Of a DNA stretch of 64,000 nt, positions 79-37,781 are shown piece after piece. The notes beneath the pieces are model-generated. The model made no database searches. It was not told the origin of the DNA and saw nothing but the letters and a program-made list of their open reading frames with translations. This DNA comes from a virus. Both the position numbers and the translations under genes were made by a program. Every line of letters begins with the position of its first letter. The stretch's first letter is position 1. Location of the stretch: positions 1 through 64,000 of the IMG/VR virus record IMGVR_UViG_3300020183_000039; one strand, written 5' to 3'.

Positions 79-94
79 GGCGCCCTCCTGCGTG

Positions 95-583
95 TTACTC
101 TGGGAGGCCGGACTTCCCGGCCCTCATACGGTCGCGCACGGTCTTCGGGAGGCCCTGCTCCCAGCCGTGCTCCTTCGCAATGCGGATGATTGCGCGCATC
201 ACCGCGTCCGGGTCCTTGGCGCGGCCCACGGAGGACCAGGCCGCCGACACGTCGCCGGGCGACGCGATCGGGAACGACATGTCCGGGCCGGCGAAACCGC
301 CCTTCATCTTGCCGTCCTGGAGGGCCTTGCGCATGTCGCCGGACCACTCGCGGTGGTTGACACCGTAGGCCTCCTCCTGGTAGTTGACCCGGTTCTGGCG
401 GGACTGCTCCATCCGGGCGCGCTTGCGGCCCATGATCTCGCGCATCACGTCGTCGCCGACGACGTAGTTGTCGCGGTCCTTGGGGATGAGGGCCTCGACC
501 CTCTCGCGGCGCTCCTTGTTCTTCTTGAGCAGGTCGCCGACGGGGATCACCTGCCCCACCAGCGTGTCAGTTAGGTTCATCAT
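95..583 (-). CDS. Hypothetical protein with small phage helical domain
   Basis: 162 residues starting MMNLTDTLVG. The N-terminal half is charged and helical (KKNKERRERVEALIPKDRD). Residues 98-140 contain FPIASPGDVSAAWSSVGR followed by a helix ending KEHGW; this resembles the small 'PI..P.DV..A...' module (DUF6582-like) attached to phage protease and tail proteins. I recall that family only by pattern. The start overlaps the end of the upstream acidic gene by 17 bases, and GGAGG sits just ahead of it. It lies at the end of the tagged-protein cassette but has no cysteine tag itself. Confidence 0.75.
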   Translation of the reverse strand: MMNLTDTLVGQVIPVGDLLKKNKERRERVEALIPKDRDNYVVGDDVMREIMGRKRARMEQSRQNRVNYQEEAYGVNHREWSGDMRKALQDGKMKGGFAGPDMSFPIASPGDVSAAWSSVGRAKDPDAVMRAIIRIAKEHGWEQGLPKTVRDRMRAGKSGLPE

Positions 584-1343
584 CAGAGGGGTCCTCCTCC
601 TCGGTTTCGTCTTCGGTTACGTCGGGCTCGGTTTCCTCCTCTTCGCCCTGGGTTTCCTCGGGCGCGTAGTCCTCGTCCTCCTCCTCCTCCTCCTCCTCTT
701 CCTCGCCGTCTTCGGTCAGCGCCGCCAGCTCGGCCTTGAGCTCGGCGATCCTGGCCGCGATGTCGTCGGCGTCGGGCTCGGGCTCCGGCTCGCCGTCGCC
801 ATCGGGTTCCTCGCTTTCGTCCTCTTCTTCCTCGTCGTCCGCGGGGCCGAGCAGCTCGTCGAGCATCGCGTCGATCTCCTCGTCGGTCGTGTCCTCGTCG
901 ATGCCCTCGAGCATCCGCTGGACCAGCGCGTCAAACTCCGGGTCGGCGTCGTCGTCCCCGTCATCGCCGGGGTCGGCTTCCCCCTCGCCGTCGATCTCGG
1001 CGAGCACCTCGTCGATCATGGCGTCGAGCTCCTCGTCGGACATGTCCGACAGCTCGAGTTCGTCGTCGTCGGCCGGGAGGTTGCCCTCGCTGTCGCGGAG
1101 CGCGGCCAGCAGGTCCTGCTGCTTCTGCTCGACGTCCTGCCTCTCGCCGCGCCCGTCGGGGTACTGCCAGAGGCCGGTCTTGTCGAGCCACGCGGACCGC
1201 ACCGGTGCGGTCTCGACGCCGAGCGTGTCGGAGCCGACCTTGACGCCCTGCTCCTCCGTCTCCTCGGCCTTCTGCAGCTGGGCGGCGTAGGCCTGCTGGA
1301 GCTGCTCGTAGGCCTCCTGGGAGAAGCTTCCGAATCCGGACAT
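567..1343 (-). CDS. Extremely acidic protein, possible structural or scaffold-like
   Basis: 258 residues. Residues 1-40 (SFSQEAYEQLQQAYAAQLQKAEE) form a glutamine-rich helix; residue 90 onward is dominated by Asp and Glu, ending in long runs of Glu and DDEPN. Two similar segments, D-x-EELDAMIDEVLAEIDG and EEIDAMLDELLG, look like an internal helical repeat. The Glu runs come from CTC/TTC-rich tracts on the plus strand (about 590-720), which also create long false ORFs there. No catalytic motif is visible. It could be a DNA-mimic, scaffold or internal virion protein; none is proved. Confidence 0.75.
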   Translation of the reverse strand: MSGFGSFSQEAYEQLQQAYAAQLQKAEETEEQGVKVGSDTLGVETAPVRSAWLDKTGLWQYPDGRGERQDVEQKQQDLLAALRDSEGNLPADDDELELSDMSDEELDAMIDEVLAEIDGEGEADPGDDGDDDADPEFDALVQRMLEGIDEDTTDEEIDAMLDELLGPADDEEEEDESEEPDGDGEPEPEPDADDIAARIAELKAELAALTEDGEEEEEEEEEDEDYAPEETQGEEEETEPDVTEDETEEEDPSDDEPN

Positions 1344-1373
1344 GTTGTTTCCGTGGGTTGGTACCCACGTGTC

Positions 1374-1997
1374 TTACCCGCCCAGCTCCTTGATCTGGTC
1401 CATGATAGCCTGGCGCCCGGCCTCGTTGACCTGGCCCTCGAGCGCCCTCTCCAGGCCCTCGATCCGGCTGGCGTTGCCGCCGCCGCCGGCGCGGGACCCG
1501 CCGCCGCGCCCCTGGCGTTTTGGCTTCGCGGGCTTAGGCCCTACCTTCTTCTCGCCGGCCACGGAGCCCCACTCGACCATGATCGGCTTGCCACCCTGGA
1601 TCGCCCAGCCGTATGCCTTACCGTCGATCACGACCTTCTTGTTGTTGGTCGGGTCGGAGCCCTGCGACTTGGCAGCCTTCTCGAGCTTCTCCTCCATGGG
1701 GGACTTGGGCTGCTCCTTCGGCTTCGGCTGCTGGCCTGCGGCCGCCGGCTGCCCGGGCTGCTGCGCCTGGGGCTGCGACGGCGCCGCGCCCTGCTGGGCG
1801 GGCTGTGCGGCCGGGGCCTCCCCGATCTTGCGGCAGACGCCGAAGGTCATCTTCTCCCCGGGCCCGCACTCGGCGAAGTCGCTCTGCGCCCACTCCTTCT
1901 CGACCATCGCCTCGAGGTAGCGGATGATCGCGTCCGGCCTATAGCCGTTCGACTCCAGGTAGTCGACGACGCGCTGCTCTGGTGCTCTGTCTGTCAT
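1374..1997 (-). CDS. Tag-family protein with divergent Cys-pair N-terminus
   Basis: 207 residues. The N-terminus is a helix (VVDYLESNGYRPDAIIRYLEAMVEKEW) followed by DFAECGPGEKMTFGVCRKIG, with Cys44 and Cys55. This is a shortened relative (C-x10-C) of the DFARC...CRKG tag on the upstream genes. Residues 60-115 are Ala/Gln/Pro-rich linker. The C-terminal half contains KKVVIDGKAYGWAIQGGKPIMVEWG, a compact beta-like segment, and a Gly/Arg-rich tract. The ATG overlaps the TGA of the 51-residue gene. The body is not recognised; tag membership is an inference from position and motif. Confidence 0.8.
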   Translation of the reverse strand: MTDRAPEQRVVDYLESNGYRPDAIIRYLEAMVEKEWAQSDFAECGPGEKMTFGVCRKIGEAPAAQPAQQGAAPSQPQAQQPGQPAAAGQQPKPKEQPKSPMEEKLEKAAKSQGSDPTNNKKVVIDGKAYGWAIQGGKPIMVEWGSVAGEKKVGPKPAKPKRQGRGGGSRAGGGGNASRIEGLERALEGQVNEAGRQAIMDQIKELGG

Positions 1998-2149
1998 AGG
2001 TAGGCTGCCGCCAAAAATTCGTCGTCGGATACCTTGCCGCGCTCTGCGAGCTGCTCGGCTAGTGTGAGGAGCCGCTCGGCCTCCGCCTCGTCGCCCTTGA
2101 ACAGGGCGGCCTTGCGCTTGGTCATCAGCTCCACGTACTTGCTGGCCAT
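1994..2149 (-). CDS. 50-aa-class kinase-partner mini-protein, copy 2
   Basis: 51 residues, MASKYVELMTKR... ending GKVSDDEFLAAAYL. It is a paralogue of the 50-residue gene at 5892-6044: both start with M-[AS]-x-YV, have a charged helix in the middle and end KVS-[DE]-DE-x3-A-AY-[LI]. Both directly follow a tagged kinase-like gene. The stop overlaps the next ATG as ATGA, which argues for real translation. It is predicted to be a two-helix soluble peptide. The conserved pairing suggests a kinase partner, chaperone or inhibitor; there is no direct evidence. Confidence 0.75.
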   Translation of the reverse strand: MASKYVELMTKRKAALFKGDEAEAERLLTLAEQLAERGKVSDDEFLAAAYL

Positions 2150-2189
2150 GGTGTGTGTGGTGTCGGTGCTCTTCGTGGTATTATGCGGG

Positions 2190-4550
2190 CTAGACGCCGT
2201 CGTACAGCATCTCGACGTACGCTTTGGCGGCCGTCTCCGACATGCCGTCGAGGACCCGGTCGATGTGCTCCGGCTTGTTCCGGATGCCCATGCCGCGCAT
2301 GCGGTTGGTGTCGATGTCGAGCTCCTCGAGCGCGCGGTTGACCCTCTCCTGGTTGCGGCGGAAGCGGTAGTAGGCCGGGGCCTCGCCGCCGCTCGCCTTG
2401 TAGCGGCCGATGAACCGCTCGGACTGCCAGTCGCCCTGGTTCGTGCCGAAGGCCTCCATGAGGGCGGCCTTGTAGCTGGGCTGCGCCAGGCCGAAGTCGA
2501 TCGCCTGCATGCGGCCGGTCGCCTTGTCGTAGAAGACGTTGTTGCCGTGCATGTCGTTGTGGGCGACGCCGGCCAGGTGGATGTCGCGGCGGGTCCGGAT
2601 GTACTCCTCGAGGACCTTGTTCTTCTCGGCGGCCGAGCGGGGGTTGTACTGGCCGACCGGGACGCCCTTGGCCTCGCCGATGCCGAGGTAGCCCTGGCCC
2701 TCCTTCACGTGGCCGCCATAGCCGGCGCCGACAACGCGCATGTTCGGACTGACGACTGCCCCGTGGAACTCGGGGACGCGGCCGGTGCTCTGGAGCTTCT
2801 GCCACACCTCGGCCTCGTGCTCTCCGATCTTGCCCTGCTTGATGACGCCGGGCGGCGGGCCGTCGGTGCGGTAGGCAGCGCCGAACGCTCCTTTGGCCAG
2901 CAGCCGATTGTTGGTCTGGCCGTAGGTAGCGATCGGATCGTAGTCTTTTACCGCCCGGTCGAGCTTCCAGCCGGCCTTCACGGCTGTGGCGGTCGTCATA
3001 CCAGCAGTGACCTTCACGGGGCCGGCGGGTGTCACCCCGCGGCCGCCGAGCTCCTCCTCGATCTTCCGGCGCTGGGCCGCGCCGAGGTCCCCGCGGCGGA
3101 GCACCGCCTGCAGCTTGTCGGTCGGCTGAGCGAGGAACTTCTGGTTGATTTGCTTTGGCTTGGCCGAGGCTATCTCGGGCTGGGCGGCGAGCTTTGCATT
3201 CTTCTCCCGTAGCTTCTGACCAAGCTCGCGCCGGGCCTCCCTGCCAGCCGACCCCGGCTGCGCCGCGCGCTTCATCAGGACGGCGGTGCTGGCGTCCTTC
3301 GCCCCCGCCTTGACTGGCGCGACGCCGGCCTCGATGTCCATGCGCTTGCGGATCAGGCCCTTCTCGAGGCTGTCGAGGAACGCCTTCTGGTCCGGCTTCT
3401 GGTACGCCGGCTCGTTGCGCCTGCGTCTGATTGCCTCAATCTGCCTGTTGACATCCTCGATGGCCGCCTTGCGCGCCTGCGCGTCGCGCGGCTTCGCGGC
3501 CGGTTTGGGCTCGGCGCCCCTGCCGCCCTGCTCGCGCCGTTTCAGCTCGGCCTCGATGGCCTTCCGCTGGTAGGCGTAGAGCTTGCGGTTGTCCAGGTAC
3601 TCCTGCAGCTTCTGCGTGGTCTCCTTCTTCAGGAACCGCTTGTTGACCTGCATCGAGGGCTTTTCCTGGGCCGCCTTCGCGGGCTTCTTGGTCTCCTTGA
3701 CCGGCGCGGCTGCCTCACCCTTGCGGCGCGCCATCTGCTCGCCCCTGGCCTCGCGATCCTTCCTGAAGCGGGACATGTCCTCGGCCCGTACCCTATCGAA
3801 GGCCTCCTGGGCCCGCTTGATCTGGTCCGGGTCGCGGCCGAGTTTGGCGCGCTCCAGCGCTTTGCGGGCGGCGTCGTAGCGCGGGCCCGCCAGGTAGCGC
3901 TCCTGCTCGAGCCCGCGGACGCGGCGGTCCAGCGTTTCGTTGCCCATGCCGCGGACGCGCCCGACCTCGCTGGCCCTCGCGGCCAGGGCCTCCTCGATCT
4001 TCTTCCTCTGGCCCGCGTTGAGCTGCCGCTCGTCGAGGATCTTCTGGAGTTCGCGCGCGTTGCGAACGTTGAGGAACTTCTCGTTGACGACGCCGGTGAG
4101 CTTCTCCTTCTTGGGCTCGGCGCCCTTGATGGCCTTTGCCGCCTGCTCCGGGGTCTTCACGCCCTTGACGTCGGCGGGCCTCTGCGTCACGCCCATCCGC
4201 TCGTTCAGCCTGCGGACCAGCGACTGTACAGCCTCTGGGCCCTTGACCATCTTGAGACCCTTCTCCTCGCGGAGGCGTTTGTTCTCGTCGAGGATCGACT
4301 CGACCCTCATGCCGGCCGCGCGGCCCTTGTTGTACACGTCGCCCTGGCGGTCGCCCGGGCGGTAGGAGATGGGCGTGCCCTTGCGGCACTGGCCCTGCGT
4401 CCCGTAGACGCTGCCGTCGGGCCGCTGGCAGACCTGCGCGAAGTCGAAGTCCCCGGCGCCGCCGCCCTCCGTGAACTCGGCGAGCAGCGCGTCGCGCACC
4501 TCGCTCTCGAGCGACGGGTCGAAGCCGCCGTGCTGCGTTAGCTTGTCCAT
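2190..4550 (-). CDS. Tagged protein with C-terminal protein-kinase-like domain
   Basis: 786 residues. The tag lies at 34-58: DFDFAQVCQRPDGSVYGT then GQCRKG, Cys41 and Cys55. Three copies of a roughly 36-residue repeat (N-[EKQ]-[KR]-FL...LQ..L..R.L.A.QR..IE.EL) lie near 155-191, 302-338 and 468-503, separated by Lys/Arg/Ala-rich linkers. A kinase fold occupies about 548-700: glycine loop KGAFGAAY, Lys571 in VIKQ, catalytic loop HNDMHGNN (664-671), metal motif DFG (685-687). HND with a following N resembles RIO/APH-type small-molecule or protein kinases. The C-terminus YVEMLYDGV matches that of the other kinase gene. The two-base gap after the HNH gene indicates cotranscription. Confidence 0.88.
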   Translation of the reverse strand: MDKLTQHGGFDPSLESEVRDALLAEFTEGGGAGDFDFAQVCQRPDGSVYGTQGQCRKGTPISYRPGDRQGDVYNKGRAAGMRVESILDENKRLREEKGLKMVKGPEAVQSLVRRLNERMGVTQRPADVKGVKTPEQAAKAIKGAEPKKEKLTGVVNEKFLNVRNARELQKILDERQLNAGQRKKIEEALAARASEVGRVRGMGNETLDRRVRGLEQERYLAGPRYDAARKALERAKLGRDPDQIKRAQEAFDRVRAEDMSRFRKDREARGEQMARRKGEAAAPVKETKKPAKAAQEKPSMQVNKRFLKKETTQKLQEYLDNRKLYAYQRKAIEAELKRREQGGRGAEPKPAAKPRDAQARKAAIEDVNRQIEAIRRRRNEPAYQKPDQKAFLDSLEKGLIRKRMDIEAGVAPVKAGAKDASTAVLMKRAAQPGSAGREARRELGQKLREKNAKLAAQPEIASAKPKQINQKFLAQPTDKLQAVLRRGDLGAAQRRKIEEELGGRGVTPAGPVKVTAGMTTATAVKAGWKLDRAVKDYDPIATYGQTNNRLLAKGAFGAAYRTDGPPPGVIKQGKIGEHEAEVWQKLQSTGRVPEFHGAVVSPNMRVVGAGYGGHVKEGQGYLGIGEAKGVPVGQYNPRSAAEKNKVLEEYIRTRRDIHLAGVAHNDMHGNNVFYDKATGRMQAIDFGLAQPSYKAALMEAFGTNQGDWQSERFIGRYKASGGEAPAYYRFRRNQERVNRALEELDIDTNRMRGMGIRNKPEHIDRVLDGMSETAAKAYVEMLYDGV

Positions 4551-4551
4551 G

Positions 4552-5892
4552 TCAGCCCTCCCCTCCGGCCGCGTTCAGGATCGCCACCCGCTCCGCGGCC
4601 GTCAGGCCGCTGGTGGGGCCGAAGCGGGCCTCCACGTCCTTCAGGATCTCCGACCGCGGGCGCGAGTCGTTCTTGGAGCTCGCGATCGCCTGGCCGATGC
4701 TCTTGAGGTCGGACTCCTCGAGCTTGAAGCCCCAGCGCATGCGGACGAGCGCCCTGCCCTCGCCCACGGTCGGGTACGCCGTCTGGCCCCTCGACCCGCC
4801 CTTCTTGACCCACGCGGCCCCGGCGCTGCCCTGGACCGACGCCTGCAGCATGTCCTTGATCTCGCCCATCTTCGCCGTGGCCAGCATGTCGCCGATCTGC
4901 TTCTGCGTCATCAGCGGCATGTTCTCCTTGAGCGCCTGGCGGCGCTGGGCCTTCTCGGCCGCCGCCGCGCTGCCGGCGCCCTTGACCCTGGCCACCTCGT
5001 CCGCTGACATCGCGGCGTTCTCCCTGAGCTTCTTGAGCAGCTGCGTGTTGAGGTAGTCCTCCGCCGCCTTACCCGTGAGGCCCTTGGCGCGGACGCCGGC
5101 CTCGATGTTACCCTTCGTCTGGTTCGTGGCGGTGCTCACCCAGATCCAGTTGTTGGGCGAGTCCTTGCCGCCCATCGAGCCCGCCAGCCTGTGGTCGAGC
5201 TGCATGCCTGTGCTCCAGGGCAGGAACTTGCCGTTGACGTCCTTGAAGTCGTTGTCCATGAGAGACTTGAGGACGGCCTTGGCGCGGGCGTCCTTGGGCT
5301 GGTCGCCCCACGCCTCGGCGCGCATGCCGGCCTCGGGGGTCCCCTTGCCGTCGAGCTTGCCGCTCACCTTGCCCCAGGTCTTCTCGGCCTTCATCCTGTC
5401 GATGACAAAATTGACCTCGGCCTCAGAGGTGTCGTGGGGCGGCCTGTAGGTCCGGTCGCCGCCGCTCTCGTAGAACTTGACGTACTTCGCGGCCTCGCCC
5501 GGGTCCTGCAGGGTCACGCCGGCGGCCTGCCTGCCGCCCGAGACCGTCGCGGATAGCGTGTCGACGGTGTTGGATGCCCTCACGGCCTGCTCGACGCTGA
5601 GCTTCTTCTTGACGCCCTCGGCCACGCGGCTGAGCTGCTTGTCGTCGAGCTCCTCGAGCTTCTTCCTGGTCTCGCCGGAGGCGCCGAGGCTGTCGATCAG
5701 CCTCTTGCGCTCGCCGGCATCGAGCCTGCACTCCTTAGCGGACGAGATGAAGCTCTCGCCGCACGGGATACCTGTCCCGGCCTTGGCGAACTCGAGCGAG
5801 CCGGCCGGCTCGGAGTAGCGGAGCGCGAGTACCCCCCTGGCTCTCGTCTCGAGGCTCGGGTTCCAGCCGCCGTGCTGCTTCAGGCGCGCCAT
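4552..5892 (-). CDS. Tag-family HNH endonuclease-like protein
   Basis: 446 residues. The start LKQHGGWNPSLE matches the kinase gene's LTQHGGFDPSLE, so the lead helix is shared, but the cysteine motif is GIPCGESFISSAKECR (Cys44, Cys55), a variant seen in other phage proteins with CG-x-S-x-IS...C. Residues 226-262 form an HNH-type core: WSTGMQLDHRLAG then GGKDSPNNWIWVS and TNQTKGN, with D233-H234 as the DH pair, N248 and N257. A charged helical region follows. It could cut host or competitor DNA if delivered, or act as a packaging-linked nuclease; the target is unknown. The start overlaps the 50-residue gene by one base. Confidence 0.85.
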   Translation of the reverse strand: MARLKQHGGWNPSLETRARGVLALRYSEPAGSLEFAKAGTGIPCGESFISSAKECRLDAGERKRLIDSLGASGETRKKLEELDDKQLSRVAEGVKKKLSVEQAVRASNTVDTLSATVSGGRQAAGVTLQDPGEAAKYVKFYESGGDRTYRPPHDTSEAEVNFVIDRMKAEKTWGKVSGKLDGKGTPEAGMRAEAWGDQPKDARAKAVLKSLMDNDFKDVNGKFLPWSTGMQLDHRLAGSMGGKDSPNNWIWVSTATNQTKGNIEAGVRAKGLTGKAAEDYLNTQLLKKLRENAAMSADEVARVKGAGSAAAAEKAQRRQALKENMPLMTQKQIGDMLATAKMGEIKDMLQASVQGSAGAAWVKKGGSRGQTAYPTVGEGRALVRMRWGFKLEESDLKSIGQAIASSKNDSRPRSEILKDVEARFGPTSGLTAAERVAILNAAGGEG

Positions 5893-6044
5893 CAGATGTA
5901 GGCCCCCGCGATCATCTCGTCTTCGGACACTTTCTTTGCTTTTACCATCTTGCGGGCCTTCTCGAGCAGCGCCCTGGCGTCGTCGTCGCGCCCGGCGCGG
6001 CGAGCGATCTTGTACTGCTCCATCACCTTGACGTAGTTGCTCAT
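5892..6044 (-). CDS. 50-aa kinase-partner mini-protein, copy 1
   Basis: 50 residues, MSNYVKVMEQYK... ending KKVSEDEMIAGAYI. It is paralogous to the 51-residue gene at 1994-2149. It starts one base after the kinase gene at 6046 ends and its TGA overlaps the HNH gene's ATG (TGATG). Charged helices with no cysteine, signal or membrane segment. Conserved length, ending and kinase adjacency in two places support a real gene with a kinase-linked role. Confidence 0.78.
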   Translation of the reverse strand: MSNYVKVMEQYKIARRAGRDDDARALLEKARKMVKAKKVSEDEMIAGAYI

Positions 6045-6045
6045 G

Positions 6046-7254
6046 TCACACTCCCTCGTAGAGGCTGTCGATGTACTTTTCGGCCTGCGAGCGCGAGATG
6101 CCCTGGCGGTCGAGCGGCTGGGCCGGGTCGAAGCCGTCGGCCTTCATCTGCTTGGCGACGGCCTCCTGATTCTGCTCGAACCTGGCGAGCATCGGGCCGG
6201 CGTTGGACCTGGGCCCGCTGCCGGACCTCGGGCCGGCCAGGTCCGACAGCATGCTGCCGCTCTTGAAGTCCCCGCTCGAGCCGAGGGTGAGGCCCTCCTG
6301 CAGCGCCGACACCGGCGACGTCTTGGCCATACCGAAGTCGATCAGGCCGCCCTTGCCCGTCGCGCTGTCGTAGAAGAAGTTGCCGTCGTGCTGGTCGCCG
6401 TGGCTCACGCCGCGCTTGTGCATGTCGCGGTTCAGCCGGACCAGCTCGTCCGCCGCCTTGGCTGACGCCTTGCTCGGGCCGTCATACAGCAGGTCGGTAT
6501 CCATGATCGCCCTGCCCCTGGCGAGTTCCATCTCGATGAGGTTGCCCTCGTTGCCCTTGATCTTGGGGACGCCGTCCACGCCCTCGAGCTTCTTCTGGGC
6601 CGCGACCTCCTCGGGCCCGAGCTCGCCCTTCTTGATGACGGTGCCGTCCTCCGTGCGGCGGACCTGCGCGAAGCCGCCCTCGCCCAGGGTCTTGGCGCTC
6701 TCGTACCGGCCGGCCAGCGACCTAGGGTCGCCCCCTCCCGGCTTGACGGCCACGCCCTTCAGGGCCGCCTCCTCGTAGATCTCCTTGGGGCTGTAGTCGA
6801 GGCCGCCGAGCGTCCCGTCGGCCTTCTTCCAGAAGTATTTCCCGTCCTTCTTGACGTAGGTATCGTCGCCGACCTGTACCTCCGAGCCGTCCGGCGCGCC
6901 CTTGAGGCCGTCCATGGACAGTTCGATCTTGGCGGGCTTCGCCGGCTCCTCCTTCTTGGGCGCCTCCTCCTTGGGGGCGGCTGGCGCCGCGGCCGGCTTG
7001 GCGTTGATGGCCCGGAGCTCCTTGATGGCGTCCTCCTTGCTCTTCCGCCCCTCGACCACCTCGAGAGCTATCTGGGCCTTCTTGTTGCCCTTGGCGGCGG
7101 CGTCCCTGAGGATCTTCATCTCGCGCGGGCCGACCTCCTTACCCTTCCTGCACTGGCCGCCGGTCCCGTAGTACGAGCCGTCCGCACGCTGGCACCGCGC
7201 GAAGTCGAGCACCGCGAGGGCGTCCTCCGAAAAGATTAGGTGGGTGCGCTTCAT
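6046..7254 (-). CDS. Tagged protein-kinase-like protein
   Basis: 402 residues. The N-terminus MKRTHLIFSEDALAVLDFAR leads into CQRADGSYYGTGGQCRKG (Cys21, Cys35). Residues 85-110 are an Ala/Pro/Lys linker, and 125-150 (VQVGDDTYVKKDGKYFWKK) look like a small beta unit. The kinase-like domain covers about 183-320: glycine loop GEGGFAQV, Lys208 in VIKK, Glu at EMELARGR, catalytic loop HGDQHDGN (285-292) and DFG (306-308). All core residues of an active kinase are present. The C-terminus YIDSLYEGV matches the second kinase gene. The ATG overlaps the TGA of the 139-residue gene. Confidence 0.9.
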   Translation of the reverse strand: MKRTHLIFSEDALAVLDFARCQRADGSYYGTGGQCRKGKEVGPREMKILRDAAAKGNKKAQIALEVVEGRKSKEDAIKELRAINAKPAAAPAAPKEEAPKKEEPAKPAKIELSMDGLKGAPDGSEVQVGDDTYVKKDGKYFWKKADGTLGGLDYSPKEIYEEAALKGVAVKPGGGDPRSLAGRYESAKTLGEGGFAQVRRTEDGTVIKKGELGPEEVAAQKKLEGVDGVPKIKGNEGNLIEMELARGRAIMDTDLLYDGPSKASAKAADELVRLNRDMHKRGVSHGDQHDGNFFYDSATGKGGLIDFGMAKTSPVSALQEGLTLGSSGDFKSGSMLSDLAGPRSGSGPRSNAGPMLARFEQNQEAVAKQMKADGFDPAQPLDRQGISRSQAEKYIDSLYEGV

Positions 7255-7670
7255 TTTTCATCCGCACGGTCCATCTGCGCCTTGACCTTCTCGGCCCAGG
7301 CCCTGCCCGGGTCGCCGCCCCAGAGCAGCCAGGAGATGAGGCTGTTGGACGGGGGGCTCATCGTGTGGTTCTTCTTGTACGCGGAGTGGCGGGCGAAAAA
7401 GCTCACCATGCGCCCTATCGTAGCGGGGGACAGGCTCTGGCGGTTCTTCAGCGACGCGGCGCGCTGGACGCCGGAGCCGACGCCCTCCTCGGCCGCCTGC
7501 TTCGTGCTGAAGCCGCCGCGGCCGGTCTTCTTGCGCAGCTCGAGCCCGCGGGCCGCCGCGTCCGCGACGGACTGGGGCGGGCGGAAGTCGATGTCCCCGT
7601 ACTTCTCGGCCCACTCCGGGTTCTCGGCCCACTCGAGGGCCTCTGGGTTGATGCGTCCGAAGTTGTTCAT
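7251..7670 (-). CDS. Conserved 139-aa phage protein, copy A
   Basis: 139 residues starting MNNFGRINPEALEWAENPEW. It is closely similar to the 138-residue gene at 10176-10592, sharing IDFRPPQSVADAAARGLELR, an A-[AS]-LKNRQ-x-L segment, TIGRMVSFFARHSAYKKNH and LISWLLWGGDPG. The 'FFARH ... WLLWGGDPG' pattern recurs in phage head-region proteins; the family's role is unknown to me. The start codon at 7670 overlaps the upstream TGA (TGATG). A longer frame upstream of this ATG is only a shadow of the 302-residue gene. Its place between two tagged genes suggests it serves the tagged set. Confidence 0.88.
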   Translation of the reverse strand: MNNFGRINPEALEWAENPEWAEKYGDIDFRPPQSVADAAARGLELRKKTGRGGFSTKQAAEEGVGSGVQRAASLKNRQSLSPATIGRMVSFFARHSAYKKNHTMSPPSNSLISWLLWGGDPGRAWAEKVKAQMDRADEK

Positions 7671-8578
7671 CAGCTCACGTAGTACTTGCCCTGGCCCTTG
7701 GTGCCGGTCAGCTCGTCGAGCCGCCCGCCGACCTGCTCGGCCTTCTTCCTGAGGCGCTTCATGGCCTCGTCGATCTGGTTCACGCGGCCGATCTGCAGGC
7801 GCATCTGGGCGACGTTGCGCTCGTTGGAGAGCCTCTTCATCGCGGCGCGGGCGCGGCCGATGAACTTCTCGCCGCGGGCGACCTCGCGCTCGCCGGCCTT
7901 GGCGTCGGCCATTGCGCCGCCCTTGGCCGCCCCTGGCTTGTTTGCGAACATCCGGGGATACCTGGCCGCGATGCGTGCCTTGATCTTGGCGTCCGCCCTG
8001 GCGGCTCGCTCGCGGGCCACGTCGTCGAACGTCCGGCCGGTGCGCCGGGCTTCGGCCTCGACCTTCGCGTTGCGTTGCAGGCCCTGGAGTTCGTTCCGTA
8101 GATCTTTCAGCTTCTTCTTGTCGCCGGACGCCTTGGCGGCGGCGATTCGCTCTTTGAGCACGGACATCCGGTCGGCCTTGGCGTCGGCCATTGCCCCGCC
8201 GCCGGAAAGATTGACGCCCCTGGCCTTGAGCTGGCCTTCGACGGCCGCGAGGGCTTGCATCAGGTTGTTGGTCTTGCCCAGATCGCCCGACTTCGCGGCG
8301 TCGCCGATCTGCTTGGTGAGGGAGGCGCGGAGCTTCATCGCCTGCTCGTTGCTCACCCCGCCGGACCTCGTCGCCTTGGCCCTCGTCTGCTCGGCCGGCT
8401 TGTCGCCCGCCTCCTTGCCCGTGCGGCACTGGCCGCTGGTGCCGTAGAACGAACCATCTGCTCGCTGGCAACGGGCAAAGTCGTACGACTCGCCCTGCTC
8501 CTCGGAGAAACGAAGGTGGAGGTCGTCGATGGCTTTGGCGGCGGACTCGCTGAAGTCGCCGAACTGCTTGAGTTTCAT
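7670..8578 (-). CDS. Tagged coiled-coil basic protein
   Basis: 302 residues. A lead helix (MKLKQFGDFSESAAKAIDDL) precedes YDFARCQRADGSFYGTSG and QCRTGKEAG (Cys37, Cys51). The rest is Lys/Arg/Ala-rich helix with two copies of GGAMADAKA near 165 and 220, encoded by a 21-bp perfect direct repeat. The C-terminus is LTGTKGQGKYYVS. No enzyme motif is seen; a nucleic-acid-binding or filamentous internal protein would fit. It is the equivalent, in the second duplicated block, of the 180-residue tagged gene at 10611-11153. Confidence 0.85.
   Translation of the reverse strand: MKLKQFGDFSESAAKAIDDLHLRFSEEQGESYDFARCQRADGSFYGTSGQCRTGKEAGDKPAEQTRAKATRSGGVSNEQAMKLRASLTKQIGDAAKSGDLGKTNNLMQALAAVEGQLKARGVNLSGGGAMADAKADRMSVLKERIAAAKASGDKKKLKDLRNELQGLQRNAKVEAEARRTGRTFDDVARERAARADAKIKARIAARYPRMFANKPGAAKGGAMADAKAGEREVARGEKFIGRARAAMKRLSNERNVAQMRLQIGRVNQIDEAMKRLRKKAEQVGGRLDELTGTKGQGKYYVS
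7894..7914. repeat. 21-bp direct repeat, copy 1
   Basis: Identical to 8173-8193; both encode the GAMADAKA segment of the tagged coiled-coil protein in the same frame, so this is an internal duplication within the gene. Confidence 0.9.
8173..8193. repeat. 21-bp direct repeat, copy 2
   Basis: Perfect copy of 7894-7914, 279 bases away in the same reading frame; a possible site for in-frame recombination that would change the length of the coiled-coil protein. Confidence 0.9.
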
Positions 8579-8605
8579 CAGTCTATTTTAATACAGGGAC
8601 TGCGT

Positions 8606-8803
8606 TCAGTCTTTGTTGTCGGCCGCTTCCATCTGGGCCTTGGCTCGAGCTGATTTAGCCAACTCTGCTGAATGCTTTCTTAACTCGTTGTTTCTCTGCA
8701 TGTTGCCCATCGCATAGGCGATATTGGATGCTCTGATGAAGTCTCCGTTCTCGAGGAGTTTCTTTACAGTCGGAAGCTTTTCAAATTCTTCTATAGTAAT
8801 CAT
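8606..8803 (-). CDS. Small helical protein in cassette
   Basis: 65 residues, MITIEEFEKLPTVKKLL... ending AQMEAADNKD. Mostly helical and charged, with no cysteine. Its ATG overlaps the stop of the 459-residue tagged gene (ATGA). It occupies the slot after a tagged gene where the kinases have their 50-residue partners, but its sequence is different. It shares the AT-richer composition of its upstream neighbour, so the two may have moved together. Confidence 0.75.
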   Translation of the reverse strand: MITIEEFEKLPTVKKLLENGDFIRASNIAYAMGNMQRNNELRKHSAELAKSARAKAQMEAADNKD

Positions 8804-10179
8804 TCTTCAAAGGGATCGGGATAGGTGGAGAGCTGAGAGGCAAAGTCTCCAAAGTCTTCTCTCTTAGACATGACTTCAAAGATTCTAGCGGCTTGACGGG
8901 CCGAACGGTCCCAGTTCCTATCTTCTTTAGAACCGGGTCGTATCTCTCCGCTTTCGATGAAAGCATCTTTCATAAACTTCGCATCTTCGAGCAAAGAAGA
9001 GCGGTCAGCAATCCGTTTGCCTCCGCCGCCACTTACATGTTGGTTCATATAGTTGACGAGGATCTCTTCCATGGGTGTAATCCCCTTAGTCCCAGACGCC
9101 TTGGCAAAGTCTTCTGATGATCTCCCGAGGTAGCTGTGAATAGCAGAGTGGTAGCGATCGTGCGATGCTGTAACATCATCAAGTCCGTTTCTCTTCTGCC
9201 AATCTTTCGTGTATGAATCAAGCTTTTCTTGGCTTTTCCAGGCATCCTTGCTTGGGGCTAATTTGCCTTTCTCGTATTCATTACTTACTAAGTACTTGCC
9301 AAACCTTTCTTCTCTTGAAGTCCCCAGAGATTTTACTCTGTCTTCTGCCTCGAGTTTTCTTTGTCTTGCATCTGCAAGAATACTCCCCCTATCCTCCCCA
9401 GCAGCCATGCGTCTCCCGTCTTCTTTCATAGCCGCATCGTAGGCAGCTTTGGCCTCTTTGAGCTCCTTGAGCGCCTTAGCAGTAGCTTTAGCGTCTGGAG
9501 AGTCTCTCAAAGCCTTAAGTGCGTCGTACCTTTCGTACTCTTTAAGGGTGTAGGTACCGTCCATGACCTTGCTTTTAAGAGCTTCGATCTGGGTTGAGAC
9601 TTTGGCCTTTTGAGCATCGTTCAACGGCTTTCCAGGCGGGGCGTCAAGAGCCCCATTTTCTAAGGCCTTCTTATCTTCAGCCAAGACTTTTAACGCTGCT
9701 TTAGCGTCGTCTAAGTCTAAACCTAGCCGATCATACTTACTGTCCCATTCGCTAGTGGTCTCAAGTTGCTTTTTGAGACCACTAATCTTTTCTTGGGTTT
9801 CTTTCTCTTCTCGGCTTAGGTTTTCTAGGGCCTTCTTTGTCTCTTCGCTCGGCCCCTTCTTTTCGGGCTCAAGAGGCTTCGCATCCTCAATCTTCTGTGC
9901 CTTGGCCTGCGGTTTCGGCTCAGCAAGAGGCTTAGGAGCAGCAGGCCCCTTGGGGCTGTCGGGATCCTCCACTTTGGACAGTTTTTGGAGTGCAACTTTG
10001 GCTTTAGCGTCTCCCGCTTGTGCCTTAGCCTGCAACGCTTGGATCTCCTTGGGGCCCACTTCTTTACCCTTACGGCATTGCCCTGAAGTTCCGTAGTAAC
10101 TTTCGTCTGGACGCTGGCAACGAACAAAGTCAAGGGTTTCCAGTGCTTGCTCTGAGAATGTTGAGTAGGTCCTTTTCAT
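8800..10179 (-). CDS. Tagged protein, unknown C-terminal domain, atypical composition
   Basis: 459 residues. MKRTYSTFSEQALETLDFVR then CQRPDESYYGTSGQCRKG (Cys21, Cys35), nearly the same as the 402-residue kinase's tag. Residues 75-120 are a Pro/Lys/Glu linker; 115-320 are long charged helices. From about 335 a distinct domain begins (ASHDRYHSAIHSYLGR, then ITPMEEILVNYMNQHV, GGGGKRIADRS, RNWDRSARQAARIFEVM). The HD...YH...H spacing invites a metal-site reading, but I cannot assign a family. Codons are much AT-richer than in genes on either side, a sign of separate acquisition. Confidence 0.88.
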   Translation of the reverse strand: MKRTYSTFSEQALETLDFVRCQRPDESYYGTSGQCRKGKEVGPKEIQALQAKAQAGDAKAKVALQKLSKVEDPDSPKGPAAPKPLAEPKPQAKAQKIEDAKPLEPEKKGPSEETKKALENLSREEKETQEKISGLKKQLETTSEWDSKYDRLGLDLDDAKAALKVLAEDKKALENGALDAPPGKPLNDAQKAKVSTQIEALKSKVMDGTYTLKEYERYDALKALRDSPDAKATAKALKELKEAKAAYDAAMKEDGRRMAAGEDRGSILADARQRKLEAEDRVKSLGTSREERFGKYLVSNEYEKGKLAPSKDAWKSQEKLDSYTKDWQKRNGLDDVTASHDRYHSAIHSYLGRSSEDFAKASGTKGITPMEEILVNYMNQHVSGGGGKRIADRSSLLEDAKFMKDAFIESGEIRPGSKEDRNWDRSARQAARIFEVMSKREDFGDFASQLSTYPDPFEE

Positions 10180-10592
10180 CGCTCGTCAGCTTTCTCCATC
10201 TGTGCTTTGACTCGCTTCGCCCAGGCCTCACCGGGATCCCCACCCCAGAGCAACCATGAGATGAGTGACGCGGAAGGCGGGTTGGTCGTGTGATTCTTTT
10301 TATAGGCCGAGTGGCGGGCGAAGAAGCTGACCATGCGGCCGATGGTATTTGGGTTAAGCGCTTGTCGATTCTTCAGCGAGGCTGCTCGAGCCACGCCGCT
10401 GCCGATCCCCTGCTTGCCCGCCTCCTCCGTGGAGAGCCCTCCACGCTTATGCTTCTTACGAAGCTCCAGGCCACGAGCGGCGGCATCCGCCACGGACTGA
10501 GGAGGGCGAAAGTCGATATGGCCGTAGCGTTCAGCCCACTCGGGGTTTTCTGCCCAGGCCAAAGCCTCTTCCGAGATGCCACCGCCGAACAT
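10176..10592 (-). CDS. Conserved 138-aa phage protein, copy B
   Basis: 138 residues starting MFGGGISEEALAWAENPEW. By eye about three quarters of positions match copy A at 7251-7670, including IDFRPPQSVADAAARGLELR and LISWLLWGGDPG. It sits between two tagged genes, as copy A does. Codon choice differs from copy A although the proteins are similar, so the two did not split very recently in this genome. The stop overlaps the next ATG (ATGA). Confidence 0.88.
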   Translation of the reverse strand: MFGGGISEEALAWAENPEWAERYGHIDFRPPQSVADAAARGLELRKKHKRGGLSTEEAGKQGIGSGVARAASLKNRQALNPNTIGRMVSFFARHSAYKKNHTTNPPSASLISWLLWGGDPGEAWAKRVKAQMEKADER

Positions 10593-10610
10593 CAGCCTCG
10601 CTCCTTAGCG

Positions 10611-11153
10611 CTACTTGGAACCACTTTTAGCCGCATTCTTATCATTCACGATAAGAGCCCGGAGGATCTCAGAGGATCTCCCGCGGTTATAGTCAACTGT
10701 GCCGCGCTTCCTCTCGTTATCTTGGTACTCTTTCAGCAGTCCTTTGACTTGCTGGAAGCCCGGCTTCTCGCCAAGTTGTTCCGACCGAGCAAGGAGACGC
10801 TTCCTGGCTTCGTAGAAGGCCTTGGTTCCCTTCTCCGTATCAAAGGCACGCCTATTCATGATGGCGCGTGCGTCGGACGCCACCTGCTTTTTCAGATCTT
10901 GGCCGCCGCCGGAAGGGGCCGCAGCGGCCTTAGGAGCACTAGGTTGCTTGGGCTTTTCCTGCTTAGCCCCGGCGTCCTTGCCCATGCGGCAGCTACCGGA
11001 TGTCCCGTAGAAAGACCCGTCGGCTCGTTGGCAGCGAGCGAAGTCGTAAGCTTCTGCAAAAGCCTGCTGGTCCTCGGGGTTTTCCGAGTATTTTAGAGCA
11101 ACCAGGGCCCTAGCTTTTGCTAGGGCCTCTTCGGTGAAATGATCTTTGCGCAT
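10611..11153 (-). CDS. First tagged protein of the cassette
   Basis: 180 residues from the ATG at 11153 (a TTG nine codons upstream keeps the frame open but runs toward the terminator). The lead MRKDHFTEEALAKARALVAL and YSE resemble other tag leaders; the tag is EAYDFARCQRADGSFYGT then SCRMGKDAG (Cys41, Cys55). A short Pro/Ala linker precedes a helical body containing ARAIMNRRAFDTEKGTKAF and ending NDKNAAKSGSK. No enzyme motif is visible. A GGGTAAAA motif lies about 32 bases before the ATG, after the PhoH terminator, so the cassette may begin its own transcript here. Confidence 0.82.
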   Translation of the reverse strand: MRKDHFTEEALAKARALVALKYSENPEDQQAFAEAYDFARCQRADGSFYGTSGSCRMGKDAGAKQEKPKQPSAPKAAAAPSGGGQDLKKQVASDARAIMNRRAFDTEKGTKAFYEARKRLLARSEQLGEKPGFQQVKGLLKEYQDNERKRGTVDYNRGRSSEILRALIVNDKNAAKSGSK

Positions 11154-11240: not shown

Positions 11241-12044
11241 TTAGTCGTCGTATCGGTCTAGAATGTGAGCGATCACAGAGTTTCGTACGATGTCCTCTTT
11301 TTCGAACTGCACGATCCCAACGTCCCGCATGTCCCGAAGCCGGTAGACTGCGTCAAGAAGGCCATTGTCCTTGCGGAACACCTCTAGATCAGACTGCTTC
11401 GTGTCACCCACGATCGCCATCTTGGAATCCTGACCCAAGCGAGTCAGGCACGTCTTCACGTGCGACGGGAGCATGTTCTGCGCCTCGTCGACCACAATGA
11501 AACAGTCGTTGAAGGAGCGCCCGCGGACGTCCTCCAGAAGTACGGGCTCGACGAGCCCTTTGTTGATCAGGTATTCGGCGGCGCCTTGGTTGCGCATCAT
11601 CACCGGTAGATTGTCGAGAACTGGCCCGATTAACGGGCGGACTTTCTCGTTGAAGTCACCAGGGAGAGCACCACGGCCTCTCTGGAACTCCACTCCAACA
11701 TCGCTGCGGATGTAGATGACTTTCTCGACCTCACCCCTGGTGACTTGGGTCATTCCGAACCAGAGGGCGAGGAGGGTCTTGCCAGTTCCTGCGTGGCCAT
11801 GAGCCAGCGTGACTGCATTGCGCTCCATCTGGTTCCAGAACTCGTCCTGCCTCCAGGTCATAGCCTTGAAGGGGAGGAGGTCCATGCCTCTTTCACGGTG
11901 GACGACGTCTTCGACTTGACGCCGTACTTTGCGCTTCTCTCGAGCGGTAGGCATTAGATTGCGGATAGCGAAGGTTTGAGTTTCGACGAGGACAAACTCT
12001 AGGTGATCACCGGACTCACCTCCTTCTTCTTTGCCACCATACAT
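11241..12044 (-). CDS. phoH: PhoH-like P-loop ATPase
   Basis: 267 residues. Walker A GHAGTGKT at 83-90, Walker B/DEAQN motif in FIVVDEAQNMLPSHVKTCLTRLG, then MAIVGDTKQSD, the sensor segment typical of PhoH. The family is a putative ATP-driven RNA helicase/ATPase, common in marine phages but of unclear role. The acidic N-terminal ~60 residues are extra. GGGAG precedes the ATG, and GGGTAAGA lies 30 bases upstream. Terminator immediately downstream. Confidence 0.95.
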   Translation of the reverse strand: MYGGKEEGGESGDHLEFVLVETQTFAIRNLMPTAREKRKVRRQVEDVVHRERGMDLLPFKAMTWRQDEFWNQMERNAVTLAHGHAGTGKTLLALWFGMTQVTRGEVEKVIYIRSDVGVEFQRGRGALPGDFNEKVRPLIGPVLDNLPVMMRNQGAAEYLINKGLVEPVLLEDVRGRSFNDCFIVVDEAQNMLPSHVKTCLTRLGQDSKMAIVGDTKQSDLEVFRKDNGLLDAVYRLRDMRDVGIVQFEKEDIVRNSVIAHILDRYDD

Positions 12045-12073
12045 GGCTCTCCCTTGCGGGTGTCCGAGGCGGT

Positions 12074-12080
12074 CTTACCC
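12074..12080 (-). promoter_or_regulatory. GGGTAAG motif upstream of PhoH
   Basis: GCGGGTAAGACC on the minus strand, 30 bases before the PhoH ATG, in the short gap after the terminase gene. Same motif and spacing as upstream of several structural genes. Confidence 0.4.
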
Positions 12081-12126
12081 GCTACACTTCATTGCGTGCG
12101 TGCTCAAGAGCGCGCTAGCTACACGC

Positions 12127-13836
12127 TTAGTCGATGCCGACGTCGTACTTCAGGTCTGACCGGCCTCGGTAGCCTCTCTGCCCAGTAAGCCCGTCACCGA
12201 AGGCCCAGGACGTCTCGTTTGGCGATAGGATCTGCCGACCCTTGCCGCTTTTAAGCTCCGTGAAGTCCCTCATCAAAGCCGCACGGTCCTCCGCTCGTCC
12301 GATGCCCGACTTCATCATGTCCATGGCGTTCGCGTGGCCCGAAGCGTCCAGATGGAAAGAATAGTACGTCAAACCCCAAACCACTGCGTCCGTCTTGTCA
12401 TCGTGAGGGACGAACGGGAATGCCGTAAGCTCCTTGACAAAATCGTCTACCCAGGCTCCCTCGACAAAATGCACTCGCTTAGCTTCGAACAGCGGGCACA
12501 CCGTCTGAAGCCGCACCGTCTTGGACTTCAGTGGCTTGAACTTGTGGATCTGGATCTTGCTCTCCCGTTCCAGCATCTGGATCAGGGACTGGCCAGACGC
12601 GGCCTGCTCGATGGTCATGAACCGAGCGTTGTAGTACTTCTGGGTCTGCTGGACCATCGCGAGAAGGTCAGGGAATCCCCAGCGCCCGTGGACCAGCTCC
12701 CGGATATAGATGTTGTCCGGGTCCTTCTTCGAGAACCCTACCACGGCGATGACACTCTCGTCCGCGCTCTGCTTCTCCGAGAACGCCGTGTCGAGCGACA
12801 TGTACGTGATGTCGAACTCCGGGCATTCGTCAGCCGGCTTCACGCTGATCCAGCCAGCCTTGACGATGGAGCCTTCCTGTGCGGCGGGAAGACCTTGGTA
12901 CAGAGCGGCGAACTTTGCGCTGCCCATGATCCTCTTCTGGGAGAGGAGCATCTCTGTCGTGAAGATCGGGTTGGACGGCCAGTGCGACTCTCCATTCTTG
13001 CGCCCGAGCGGATCGATCGCCTCGTTCTCGCAGAGACCTGGCACGTTCACCCAGCGCCACCCCATCGGGTTCTCGACCTCGTCGTAGAGCCCGTCGCCGT
13101 CCATCAGGATCCCGTGAAGATCTTTCTCGTGGAAACGAGTACCGATGAGAAGCTGAGCCCAGCGGTTGGTGCGACGAGTAGACGCTTGTTCACCCCACCA
13201 GTCTTCCAGGCCTTCCAACGCTGCACGCGAATCCGAACCTTTGAGCGGGTCGTCGATCACCATTGCCCCGACACCCGGGCTATCTTCCGCCGGTGTACCG
13301 GCCGTGAAACCGGTCATCACGCCGCCTACTGACGTAGCGAGGATGAAGCCTCCGCCCTTCATGTCGTACTTGGAGTCCGGGTGGAAACCCAGCCAGTTCG
13401 GGAACACCCGAGTGAACTGCTTATGGCGTAGGTACCCGTGGATGCCTCGGAGGAAGCGATTCGAGAGCTGTTGGCCGTACGAAGCGAGGATGTGCTGGGT
13501 TTGCTGGTCTCGCCCTAGCAGCCACGCCACGAACAACTGTGATAGCATCGACTTGCCCGAGCGCGGAGCGCAACTCACGATAAGACGAGAGTAACGCCAG
13601 TCCGCGATGTCCTCGAAGCCCGAGGCGATGATCTCGTGGAACGGCTCGACCTTGAGTTTTCCGTCAAGCATCAGGTCGGCGAACGCCAGAAAGCAAGAGC
13701 GCGCCGCGCGGAATTTGAAGTCCTGCAGCACGCTCTTCGGCGCTTCCATGAGTTCTAGCTCGCGGAGGCCTCTCTTGTAGACGCGCCAGCTCGAATGCTC
13801 CTCGAGCTGTGACGCGTGGGTGATGATCGGTCTCAT
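12127..13836 (-). CDS. terL: Terminase large subunit
   Basis: 569 residues; packages DNA into the prohead. Walker A CAPRSGKS at 89-96; Walker B AMVIDDPLKG near 200 with a following TRFHEKD coupling-like segment; the nuclease domain begins ITYMSLDTAFSEKQSADES (DxA acid near 350) and ends with DDKTDAVVWGLTYY near 500. The length and order ATPase then RNase H-like nuclease are normal for TerL. The ATG overlaps the upstream small gene's stop by ATGA. No intein or frameshift seen. Confidence 0.95.
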   Translation of the reverse strand: MRPIITHASQLEEHSSWRVYKRGLRELELMEAPKSVLQDFKFRAARSCFLAFADLMLDGKLKVEPFHEIIASGFEDIADWRYSRLIVSCAPRSGKSMLSQLFVAWLLGRDQQTQHILASYGQQLSNRFLRGIHGYLRHKQFTRVFPNWLGFHPDSKYDMKGGGFILATSVGGVMTGFTAGTPAEDSPGVGAMVIDDPLKGSDSRAALEGLEDWWGEQASTRRTNRWAQLLIGTRFHEKDLHGILMDGDGLYDEVENPMGWRWVNVPGLCENEAIDPLGRKNGESHWPSNPIFTTEMLLSQKRIMGSAKFAALYQGLPAAQEGSIVKAGWISVKPADECPEFDITYMSLDTAFSEKQSADESVIAVVGFSKKDPDNIYIRELVHGRWGFPDLLAMVQQTQKYYNARFMTIEQAASGQSLIQMLERESKIQIHKFKPLKSKTVRLQTVCPLFEAKRVHFVEGAWVDDFVKELTAFPFVPHDDKTDAVVWGLTYYSFHLDASGHANAMDMMKSGIGRAEDRAALMRDFTELKSGKGRQILSPNETSWAFGDGLTGQRGYRGRSDLKYDVGID

Positions 13837-36331: not shown

Positions 36332-36778
36332 TCAGCTGAAGCTGACGAGAGCGTACTGGTCGCCGCCGATATCCAGCACGTCGCGGATGATCGGGGTCGT
36401 GCCGTTCACGGTCACGGCCGTGGAGCCGGCTGTGGCGGCGTCGGAGGCGATGCCGCCGGCGATTACTTCGAGGGCGGTACCGATGTCGTTGGCGGCCAGG
36501 GTGCCATCAGCCTCGACCAGCAGCAGACCGCTGGTGGCCACGGTCAGCATGCGCACGCGATCGGTAGCGAAGCCGGTAGGAGGAACGTTGTCGTTCACTT
36601 CGTACTGGCTCACGCCCACGGCGGCGCCGCCGTTGGATTGCTCCACCAGGAGGGGAGGGTGAGAGCCGGGGGCGGCGGTCAGTTCCACAACTCGGAACTC
36701 GTTCACCGCGGTGCCGTCGGCGACGCGGAAGGACTCAGCGAAGCGGATGTACTGCTTGCCGTATACAGGAGCTGCCAT
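36332..36778 (-). CDS. Head decoration/capsid cement-like protein
   Basis: 148 residues. The sequence (FRVVELTAAPGSHPPLLVEQSNGGAAVGVSQ, VATSGLLLVEADGTLAANDIGTALEV, TTPIIRDVLDIGGDQYALVSFS) has the beta-barrel pattern of DUF2190-like capsid decoration proteins: hydrophobic strands with A-x-D/G turns and a central 'G.v.v.a.g.i..g..l'. Position beside the major capsid gene agrees. It would stabilise the capsid after expansion. Confidence 0.7.
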   Translation of the reverse strand: MAAPVYGKQYIRFAESFRVADGTAVNEFRVVELTAAPGSHPPLLVEQSNGGAAVGVSQYEVNDNVPPTGFATDRVRMLTVATSGLLLVEADGTLAANDIGTALEVIAGGIASDAATAGSTAVTVNGTTPIIRDVLDIGGDQYALVSFS

Positions 36779-37777: not shown

Positions 37778-37781
37778 GGGA

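What the first reader, a model, noticed from the sequence alone, without database searches (positions are those of the whole stretch)
1374..11153. Array of unrelated proteins sharing one N-terminal two-cysteine tag
Five genes carry a nearly fixed short element, F-[AV]-x(1-2)-CQR-[AP]-D-[GE]-S-x-YGT-x-G-x-CR-x-G, with the two Cys 14 apart (21/35, 21/35, 37/51, 41/55, 41/55). Two more (HNH, 207-aa) keep the position and the Cys pair at 44/55 with other residues between. Before the tag is a short helix, after it a Pro/Ala/Lys linker, then unrelated domains: two kinases, an HNH nuclease, coiled coils, an unknown domain. One tag on many effector types in one operon is how polymorphic toxins and T4-type injected capsid proteins are built. 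I infer a virion-packaging or delivery signal; it could instead be a metal or disulfide clip.
Basis: partly seen in the sequence, partly recalled or inferred. Interest (0 to 1): 0.9.

Follow-up and report, generated by a model that had tools for sequence, protein, structure and literature searches.

The report
Shared packaging-like tag on phage effectors
A family of viruses that infect bacteria (the one cultured member infects cyanobacteria) puts the same short two-cysteine N-terminal tag, usually behind a probable protease-cut site, on many different enzymes (kinases, ADP-ribosyltransferases, nucleases, an NAD-synthesis enzyme), most likely to load them into the virus particle for delivery into the host.

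Summary
All seven proteins and Cys pairs are at the stated places. The tag, DF[TA]RCxR[PA][DN]G[ST]xYGTxGxCRKG, is on 145 non-redundant proteins in 78 loci from IMG/VR contigs and cyanophage S-CBWM1 (up to 15 hits per record), and none was confirmed in 84,980 bacterial/archaeal genomes. Bodies include protein kinases, ADP-ribosyltransferases with intact R-S-ExE motifs (some match T4 Alt-like families), HNH nucleases, NMN adenylyltransferases and minor-head-like proteins.

It is about 10-fold enriched before the tag, not after it, and 7-fold enriched in the phages' own head-maturation protease/scaffold proteins. It looks like that protease's cleavage site (compare T4 [LI]xE). S-CBWM1's tagged NMN adenylyltransferase is reported in its virion proteome, and two of its virion kinases carry a sister four-Cys tag. 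In T4-like cyanophages the same enzyme classes carry a T4-type capsid-targeting sequence instead.

Best reading: a lineage-specific capsid-cargo tag plus maturation site. Packaging is well supported; cleavage and ejection are inferred; the Cys chemistry is unknown. Caution: window 1-8420 is nearly identical to another phage and joins inside one tag (natural crossover or misassembly).

The parts
10611..11153 (-). p180, tagged protein (tag 10968-11045); FTE at residues 6-8, YSE 22-24, FAE 32-34 upstream of the tag
10968..11045 (-). two-Cys tag of p180 (DFARCQRADGSFYGTSGSCRMGKDAG)
10176..10592 (-). 138-aa untagged neighbour with the same N-terminal motif (MFGGGISEEAL); body matches phrog_2859
8800..10179 (-). 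p459, tagged protein with coiled-coil-like body; starts MKRTYSTFSE
10054..10131 (-). two-Cys tag of p459
7670..8578 (-). p302, tagged protein; FSE at residues 9-11 and 24-26; gene spans the compositional junction
8405..8482 (-). two-Cys tag of p302; predicted beta meander after an N-terminal helix (low-to-moderate confidence)
7251..7670 (-). 139-aa untagged neighbour (MNNFGRINPEALEWAENPEW), relative of the 138-aa protein at 10176-10592
6046..7254 (-). kinB402, tagged protein kinase with catalytic HGDQHDGN..DFG; starts MKRTHLIFSE; kinase fold predicted
7129..7206 (-). two-Cys tag of kinB402, predicted three-stranded beta meander (strands at residues 19-23, 28-31, 38-41)
4552..5892 (-). HNH446, HNH nuclease-like protein with diverged tag (Cys 44/55) and YSE at residues 26-28; homologues carry the canonical tag
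2190..4550 (-). kinA786, tagged protein kinase (HNDMHGNN..DFG); FTE upstream of the tag
4365..4445 (-). two-Cys tag of kinA786 (DFAQVCQRPDGSVYGTQGQCRKG)
1374..1997 (-). p207, variant tag FAECGPGEKMTFGVCRKIG (Cys 44/55), unchanged in the L009 homologue
567..1343 (-). acidic scaffold-like untagged protein with the same N-terminal motif (MSGFGSFSQEAYEQL)
37782..39857 (-). head-maturation protease with scaffold-like tail; seven [FY][SA]E sites against 0.65 expected from shuffling
36332..36778 (-). small head-region protein with N-terminal IRFAESF, also in S-CBWM1 gp172 (IRFAETF)
11241..13836 (-). PhoH-like gene and terminase large subunit, directly upstream of the array and co-directional with it

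Best explanation
The tag is a capsid-cargo (virion-loading) signal of a phage lineage that includes cyanophage S-CBWM1. Late in infection each tagged effector is made with an N-terminal leader: usually a short helix bearing a [FY][SA]E site, then a small two-Cys beta meander, then a Pro/Ala/Lys linker and an effector domain. The leader and tag bring the protein into the assembling prohead, probably by contact with the scaffold or its protease. The head-maturation protease then cuts after Glu of [FY][SA]E, in the scaffold and in the cargo leaders, as T4 gp21 does at [LI]xE. The mature cargo keeps the Cys tag, stays in the head with the DNA, and is ejected into the host at infection, where kinases, ADP-ribosyltransferases, nucleases and NAD-synthesis enzymes act early. 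Shown here: the shared tag, its range of bodies, the [FY][SA]E enrichment in leaders and protease, and late-operon placement. Reported by others: a tagged protein in virions. Inferred: cleavage, docking partner, ejection, and the role of the Cys pair.
For: Tag on 145 non-redundant proteins in viral loci, up to 15 hits in one 277-kb record, and none confirmed in genome contigs. Bodies match kinases, ADP-ribosyltransferases (some Alt-like, with intact R/S/ExE), cytidylyl/NMN adenylyltransferases, HNH and minor head protein. [FY][SA]E: 76 in leaders against 7.9 in shuffles (maximum 15), 18 against 14.9 after the tag; 92 against 12.9 in 15 maturation protease/scaffold proteins, while most reordered motifs fall below expectation. 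phrog_976 protease in 9 of 10 tagged records of at least 99 kb. S-CBWM1 gp39 (NMNAT) carries the tag, and an NMNAT is reported in the S-CBWM1 virion proteome (PMC10665884, PMC9602691). Kinases gp161 and gp162, of classes also reported in S-CBWM1 virions, carry a related four-Cys tag. In T4-like S-CREM2 and S-SCSM1 the mass-spectrometry-detected cargo enzymes carry T4-type CTS leaders instead. The array is co-directional with TerL and PhoH.
Against: 34 of 90 non-redundant leaders have no strict [FY][SA]E, and some tags start 7-12 residues from the N-terminus, so the site is not universal. The virion evidence is second-hand for one phage, and both citing papers warn of carry-over after CsCl purification. 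Enrichment tests do not correct for shared ancestry, and my start-codon picker gave a small bonus to FSE-like starts. No tag-scaffold contact was tested. Some S-CBWM1 tagged genes lie outside the head-gene region.
Confidence: 0.76

Rival explanations
1. The two-Cys element is a small ligand-, metal- or nucleic-acid-binding module (or a disulfide clip) needed for how these effectors act in the host cell, not for packaging.
For: Both Cys invariant and the element is basic (R/K at several positions) and Gly-rich; predicted beta meander; some tags lie directly at the N-terminus without a cleavage-like leader; in a few proteins a second tag lies inside the chain.
Against: The bodies share no substrate or chemistry, so one common functional module is hard to motivate; the leader shares its motif with the maturation protease/scaffold; a tagged protein is reported in virions; only two invariant Cys and no His, so no complete mononuclear zinc site.
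Confidence: 0.13
2. The tag directs the effectors, made during infection, to one place in the host or to the replication/transcription machinery, and their presence in virions is contamination.
For: Citing papers caution about carry-over (PMC10665884, PMC9602691); some tagged genes lie far from head genes in S-CBWM1.
Against: [FY][SA]E enrichment in leaders matches that of the maturation protease/scaffold; array in the late operon by TerL/PhoH; Alt-like cargo; the equivalent enzymes of T4-like cyanophages carry T4-type CTS leaders.
Confidence: 0.07
3. [FY][SA]E is a scaffold-binding short motif rather than a cleavage site; cargo is packaged but not processed there (a variant of the best explanation, not exclusive of packaging).
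For: The motif sits at the start of an amphipathic-looking helix (FSEEAL..F..L), and N-termini of untagged neighbours resemble it.
Against: Multiple copies inside the protease/scaffold itself resemble T4 and phiKZ cleavage sites (Glu at P1, short specificity; PMC9026906).
Confidence: 0.2
4. The array in this window is partly an assembly artefact (concerns this record only, not the tag family).
For: Window 1-8420 is nearly identical to L005-L007 with GC 0.68 against about 0.55 beyond; the junction lies in the p302 tag and everything from there to the record's end is of the other type; no other contig holds the junction sequence.
Against: Arrays of the same design occur in L005-L007, L009, L010 and L013 without such a GC jump, so the tag phenomenon does not depend on the join.
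Confidence: 0.5

Closest known systems
T4 capsid targeting sequence (CTS) and internal proteins IPI-IPIII/Alt, processed by gp21
   Same: Short N-terminal leader shared by unrelated cargo; Glu at P1 of a short protease motif that also recurs in scaffold/protease; ADP-ribosyltransferase cargo; kinB402 and p459 leaders (MKRTxxxFSE) have the length of the IPIII CTS.
   Different: P3 is F/Y rather than L/I; the protease belongs to phrog_976; a conserved two-Cys tag follows the leader and would stay on the mature protein, which the T4 CTS lacks.
Virion-associated kinases and NMNAT/cytidylyltransferases of cyanophages (S-CBWM1, S-SCSM1, S-CREM2)
   Same: Same enzyme classes; S-CBWM1 gp39 itself carries the tag.
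   Different: The passages read here do not mention any shared packaging tag; S-SCSM1 and S-CREM2 enzymes use T4-type CTS leaders.
Polymorphic toxin systems
   Same: Constant N-terminal trafficking part with exchangeable C-terminal effector; possible crossover at the constant part.
   Different: Phage head cargo rather than secreted toxin; immunity genes were not looked for.
Polyvalent proteins of phages and plasmids
   Same: Injected effector repertoire (ART, kinases, nucleases), virion-associated.
   Different: Here mostly one effector domain per gene behind a tag, in arrays, not chains of many domains.
phiKZ/SPN3US head ejection proteins processed by the prohead protease
   Same: Many head proteins cut after Glu at a short motif and ejected.
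   Different: phiKZ site is S/A-x-E instead of [FY][SA]E; no Cys tag described in the passages read.

Membership tests
T4-type CTS cargo | N-terminal leader of about 10-20 residues ending in phi-x-E with L/I at P3 | tested here: not met
   The enriched site has F or Y at P3; [LI][SA]E in leaders is only 13 against 8.0 shuffled, [FY][SA]E 76 against 7.9; leader length and P1 Glu are similar
T4-type CTS cargo | Same motif recurs in the scaffold/protease of the same phage | tested here: met
   92 sites against 12.9 expected in 15 phrog_976 proteins
T4-type CTS cargo | Processing by a gp21-family protease | tested here: inconclusive
   The protease is phrog_976; its relation to gp21 was not examined; cleavage not testable here
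Virion cargo (general) | Protein present in purified virions | tested here: inconclusive
   Reported for an NMNAT of S-CBWM1 (PMC9602691, PMC10665884), gp39 being its only gene so annotated; original data not held; not known for the window's phage
Virion cargo (general) | Delivered into the host with DNA | not testable with these tools
   Needs an infection experiment
Polymorphic toxins | Constant N-terminus with variable C-terminal toxins | tested here: met
Polymorphic toxins | Adjacent immunity genes | not tested
   No immunity search was made
Zinc ribbon or treble clef | Four Cys/His metal ligands | tested here: not met
   Only two invariant Cys, no invariant His
Known tag family in Pfam/NCBIfam/PHROGs/PDB | A model or solved structure that covers the tag | tested here: not met
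   No model matched the small tag-bearing proteins in NCBIfam or PHROGs and none of the Pfam families found describes the tag; no PDB sequence or fold match
Polyvalent proteins | Several effector domains in one polypeptide | tested here: not met
   Most tagged proteins show one recognised domain or none

The most novel reading that the evidence does not exclude
A Cys-tag code for virion loading in these phages: small two-Cys and four-Cys modules, unrelated to the T4 CTS, mark exchangeable effectors for packaging, remain on the ejected protein (perhaps as a redox- or metal-switched clip suited to passage through the tail), and act as crossover points at which phages swap cargo, as the p302 junction suggests.
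Probability: 0.3. Interest if true: 0.9.

Novelty: new variant of a known kind. Interest (0 to 1): 0.78.

Why it matters
A tag that can be read from sequence lets one list the probable injected effectors of a whole phage lineage, much as the T4 CTS did for internal proteins, without proteomics. It would help explain why kinases and NAD enzymes keep turning up in cyanophage virions, offers many candidate host-takeover effectors, gives a testable cleavage rule for the maturation protease, and could serve as a handle to load reporter proteins into cyanophage heads.

Tried and rejected
a DNA pattern for the tag with a variable gap found nothing in the own genome; replaced by protein HMMs; script error from alignment files, fixed; the only PDB sequence hits (FGF21, E 0.5) are chance; no fold match for the tag model (best E 2.4; model of low confidence); no tag relatives confirmed in bacterial/archaeal genomes; junction sequence in no other viral contig; uninformative about artefact versus recombination; weak hit in Streptomyces phage Bmoc (E 4) ignored. 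Considered and rejected: ordinary zinc domain (too few ligands), one fixed protein family (bodies differ), chance similarity. Single-linkage clustering of bodies over-merges and was not used for counts.

Full report
Observation. The window is bases 1-64000 of an 86,569-base virus record. Its terminase is closest to cyanophage S-CBWM1 (51% identity). The array is read on the minus strand directly after terminase (12127-13836) and PhoH (11241-12044), that is, with late genes; major capsid protein, portal and head-maturation protease lie at 35188-41283. The bodies are two related protein kinases with complete catalytic motifs (kinase fold for kinB402), a weak HNH match (E 0.011), and four bodies without a clear family match.

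The tag is a family. A scan of IMG/VR with the five tags gave 27 loci; a second with a variant tag listed 73 loci. An iterated HMM collected 145 non-redundant tagged proteins in 78 loci. Whole-record searches show 1-15 tag hits per record. No bacterial or archaeal genome contig gave a confirmed relative. Consensus: DF[TA]RC[VQ]R[PA][DN]G[ST]xYGTxGxC[RK]KG, both Cys and two Gly invariant where aligned. The two odd proteins are explained: HNH446 is a diverged homologue of proteins with normal tags, and the 207-aa variant is conserved in L009.

Bodies. Of 93 representative proteins, Pfam at E below 0.001 finds kinase (9), ADP-ribosyltransferase exoenzyme (7), ART (5), APH (5), ABC1 (3), cytidylyltransferase-like (3) (one protein can match several). 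PHROGs finds minor head protein (6), cytidyltransferase (4), Alt-like RNA polymerase ADP-ribosyltransferase (3) and kinases. The full-length tagged ADP-ribosyltransferases keep the R (FYRG), S (GSYSA) and ExE (ENEALLPRGT) motifs. T4 Alt is a packaged and ejected ADP-ribosyltransferase (PMC9026906).

A second element. N-terminal to the tag there is usually [FY][SA]E, often twice, flanking a short helix. In 90 non-redundant leaders it occurs 76 times against 7.9 in composition shuffles (maximum 15 of 200); after the tag 18 against 14.9. The phages' head-maturation protease (phrog_976, with scaffold-like tail) has the same motif 92 times in 15 proteins against 12.9 expected; four of five reordered motifs fall below expectation and the fifth, E[FY][SA], overlaps EF[SA]E. 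One site, FSEGET, recurs in both protease tails and cargo leaders. The protease is in 9 of 10 tagged records of 99 kb or more. T4 gp21 cuts after [LI]xE and the phiKZ protease after [SA]xE (PMC9026906). I infer that [FY][SA]E is the cleavage site of this protease. In the window's genome the N-terminal F[ST]E-x-A[LY]-like pattern at real gene starts is confined to this cluster, including three untagged neighbours. Limits: shuffles ignore shared ancestry, several of the 15 proteases are close relatives, 34 of 90 leaders lack the strict motif, and my start picker favoured FSE-like starts slightly.

Virion evidence. S-CBWM1 gp39, its only gene annotated as NMN adenylyltransferase, carries the tag. 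Two papers state that an NMNAT was found in the S-CBWM1 virion proteome, and one adds APH, ChoK and Rio2 kinases (PMC9602691, PMC10665884); both groups warn about carry-over. The original paper was not available. The APH kinase gp162 and, once its start is moved upstream, the ChoK kinase gp161 carry a four-Cys tag C-x(5)-C-x(3)-C-x(6)-C that is also on gp106 and the 'virion structural protein' gp174, and on proteins in other loci with two-Cys tags. The RIO-type kinase gp113 has neither tag.

Comparison. In T4-like S-CREM2, virion-detected SAM hydrolase, Cas9, APH kinase and cytidylyltransferase begin with T4-type leaders (MKDFDSFLEE, RFASFMAEA, MKRFDAFLTEE, MKNFSSFLTEA), and so does S-SCSM1 NMNAT (MKSFLQFLKEA). 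The pattern F..F[LIMN].E is in 4 of 13 detected and 0 of 23 undetected genes of the stretches read. Similar enzymes therefore carry lineage-specific leaders. The system here works like T4 capsid targeting but is not a member: P3 differs and a two-Cys tag is added.

Tag structure. AlphaFold gives a small three-stranded beta meander (pLDDT about 70 in kinB402; weak as a fragment), without a PDB match. With two Cys and no His it is not a complete zinc site; disulfide, shared metal or neither remain open.

Caution on the window. Bases 1-8420 are nearly identical to contigs L005-L007 and have GC 0.68, against about 0.55 beyond; identity is lost inside the p302 tag. This is either a crossover at the tag or a misassembly (one search found no second example). 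The conclusions rest on many other contigs.

Noticed in passing
window 8405-8520 (junction about 8420): Sharp GC change (0.68 to about 0.50); everything from about 8420 to 1 is nearly identical to contigs L005-L007. The join lies at the 3' end of the p302 tag: natural cargo swap or chimeric assembly.
   Followed up: partly
L032:23743-24699, L032:37376-38962, L001:21107-22669, L021:6893-7768; also L017, L022, L036, L043, L063, L064: A second, four-Cys N-terminal tag (CxKGKSCG[SA][AS]C-x6-C) on S-CBWM1 kinases of classes reported in virions, on gp174 and gp106, and on proteins in loci that also carry two-Cys tags.
   Followed up: partly
L021:6893-7768 (S-CBWM1 gp161): The GenBank start of gp161 seems too far downstream; the upstream extension contains the four-Cys tag.
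   Followed up: partly
window 36332-36778 and S-CBWM1 gp172: A small protein next to the major capsid gene has a conserved N-terminal IRFAE[ST]F, a possible maturation site.
   Followed up: no
L100:14831-16684, L019:8071-9636, L070:8424-9995: Single proteins with two tags, like fusions of two tagged genes.
   Followed up: no
window 7251-7670 and 10176-10592: Two related short untagged proteins (phrog_2859 match for the second) lie between tagged genes and share a leader-like N-terminus.
   Followed up: no
L134 (S-CREM2 gp6, gp12, gp13, gp14) and L135 (gp154): T4-type CTS leaders on virion-detected enzymes, including a Cas9-like protein, of a T4-like cyanophage.
   Followed up: partly
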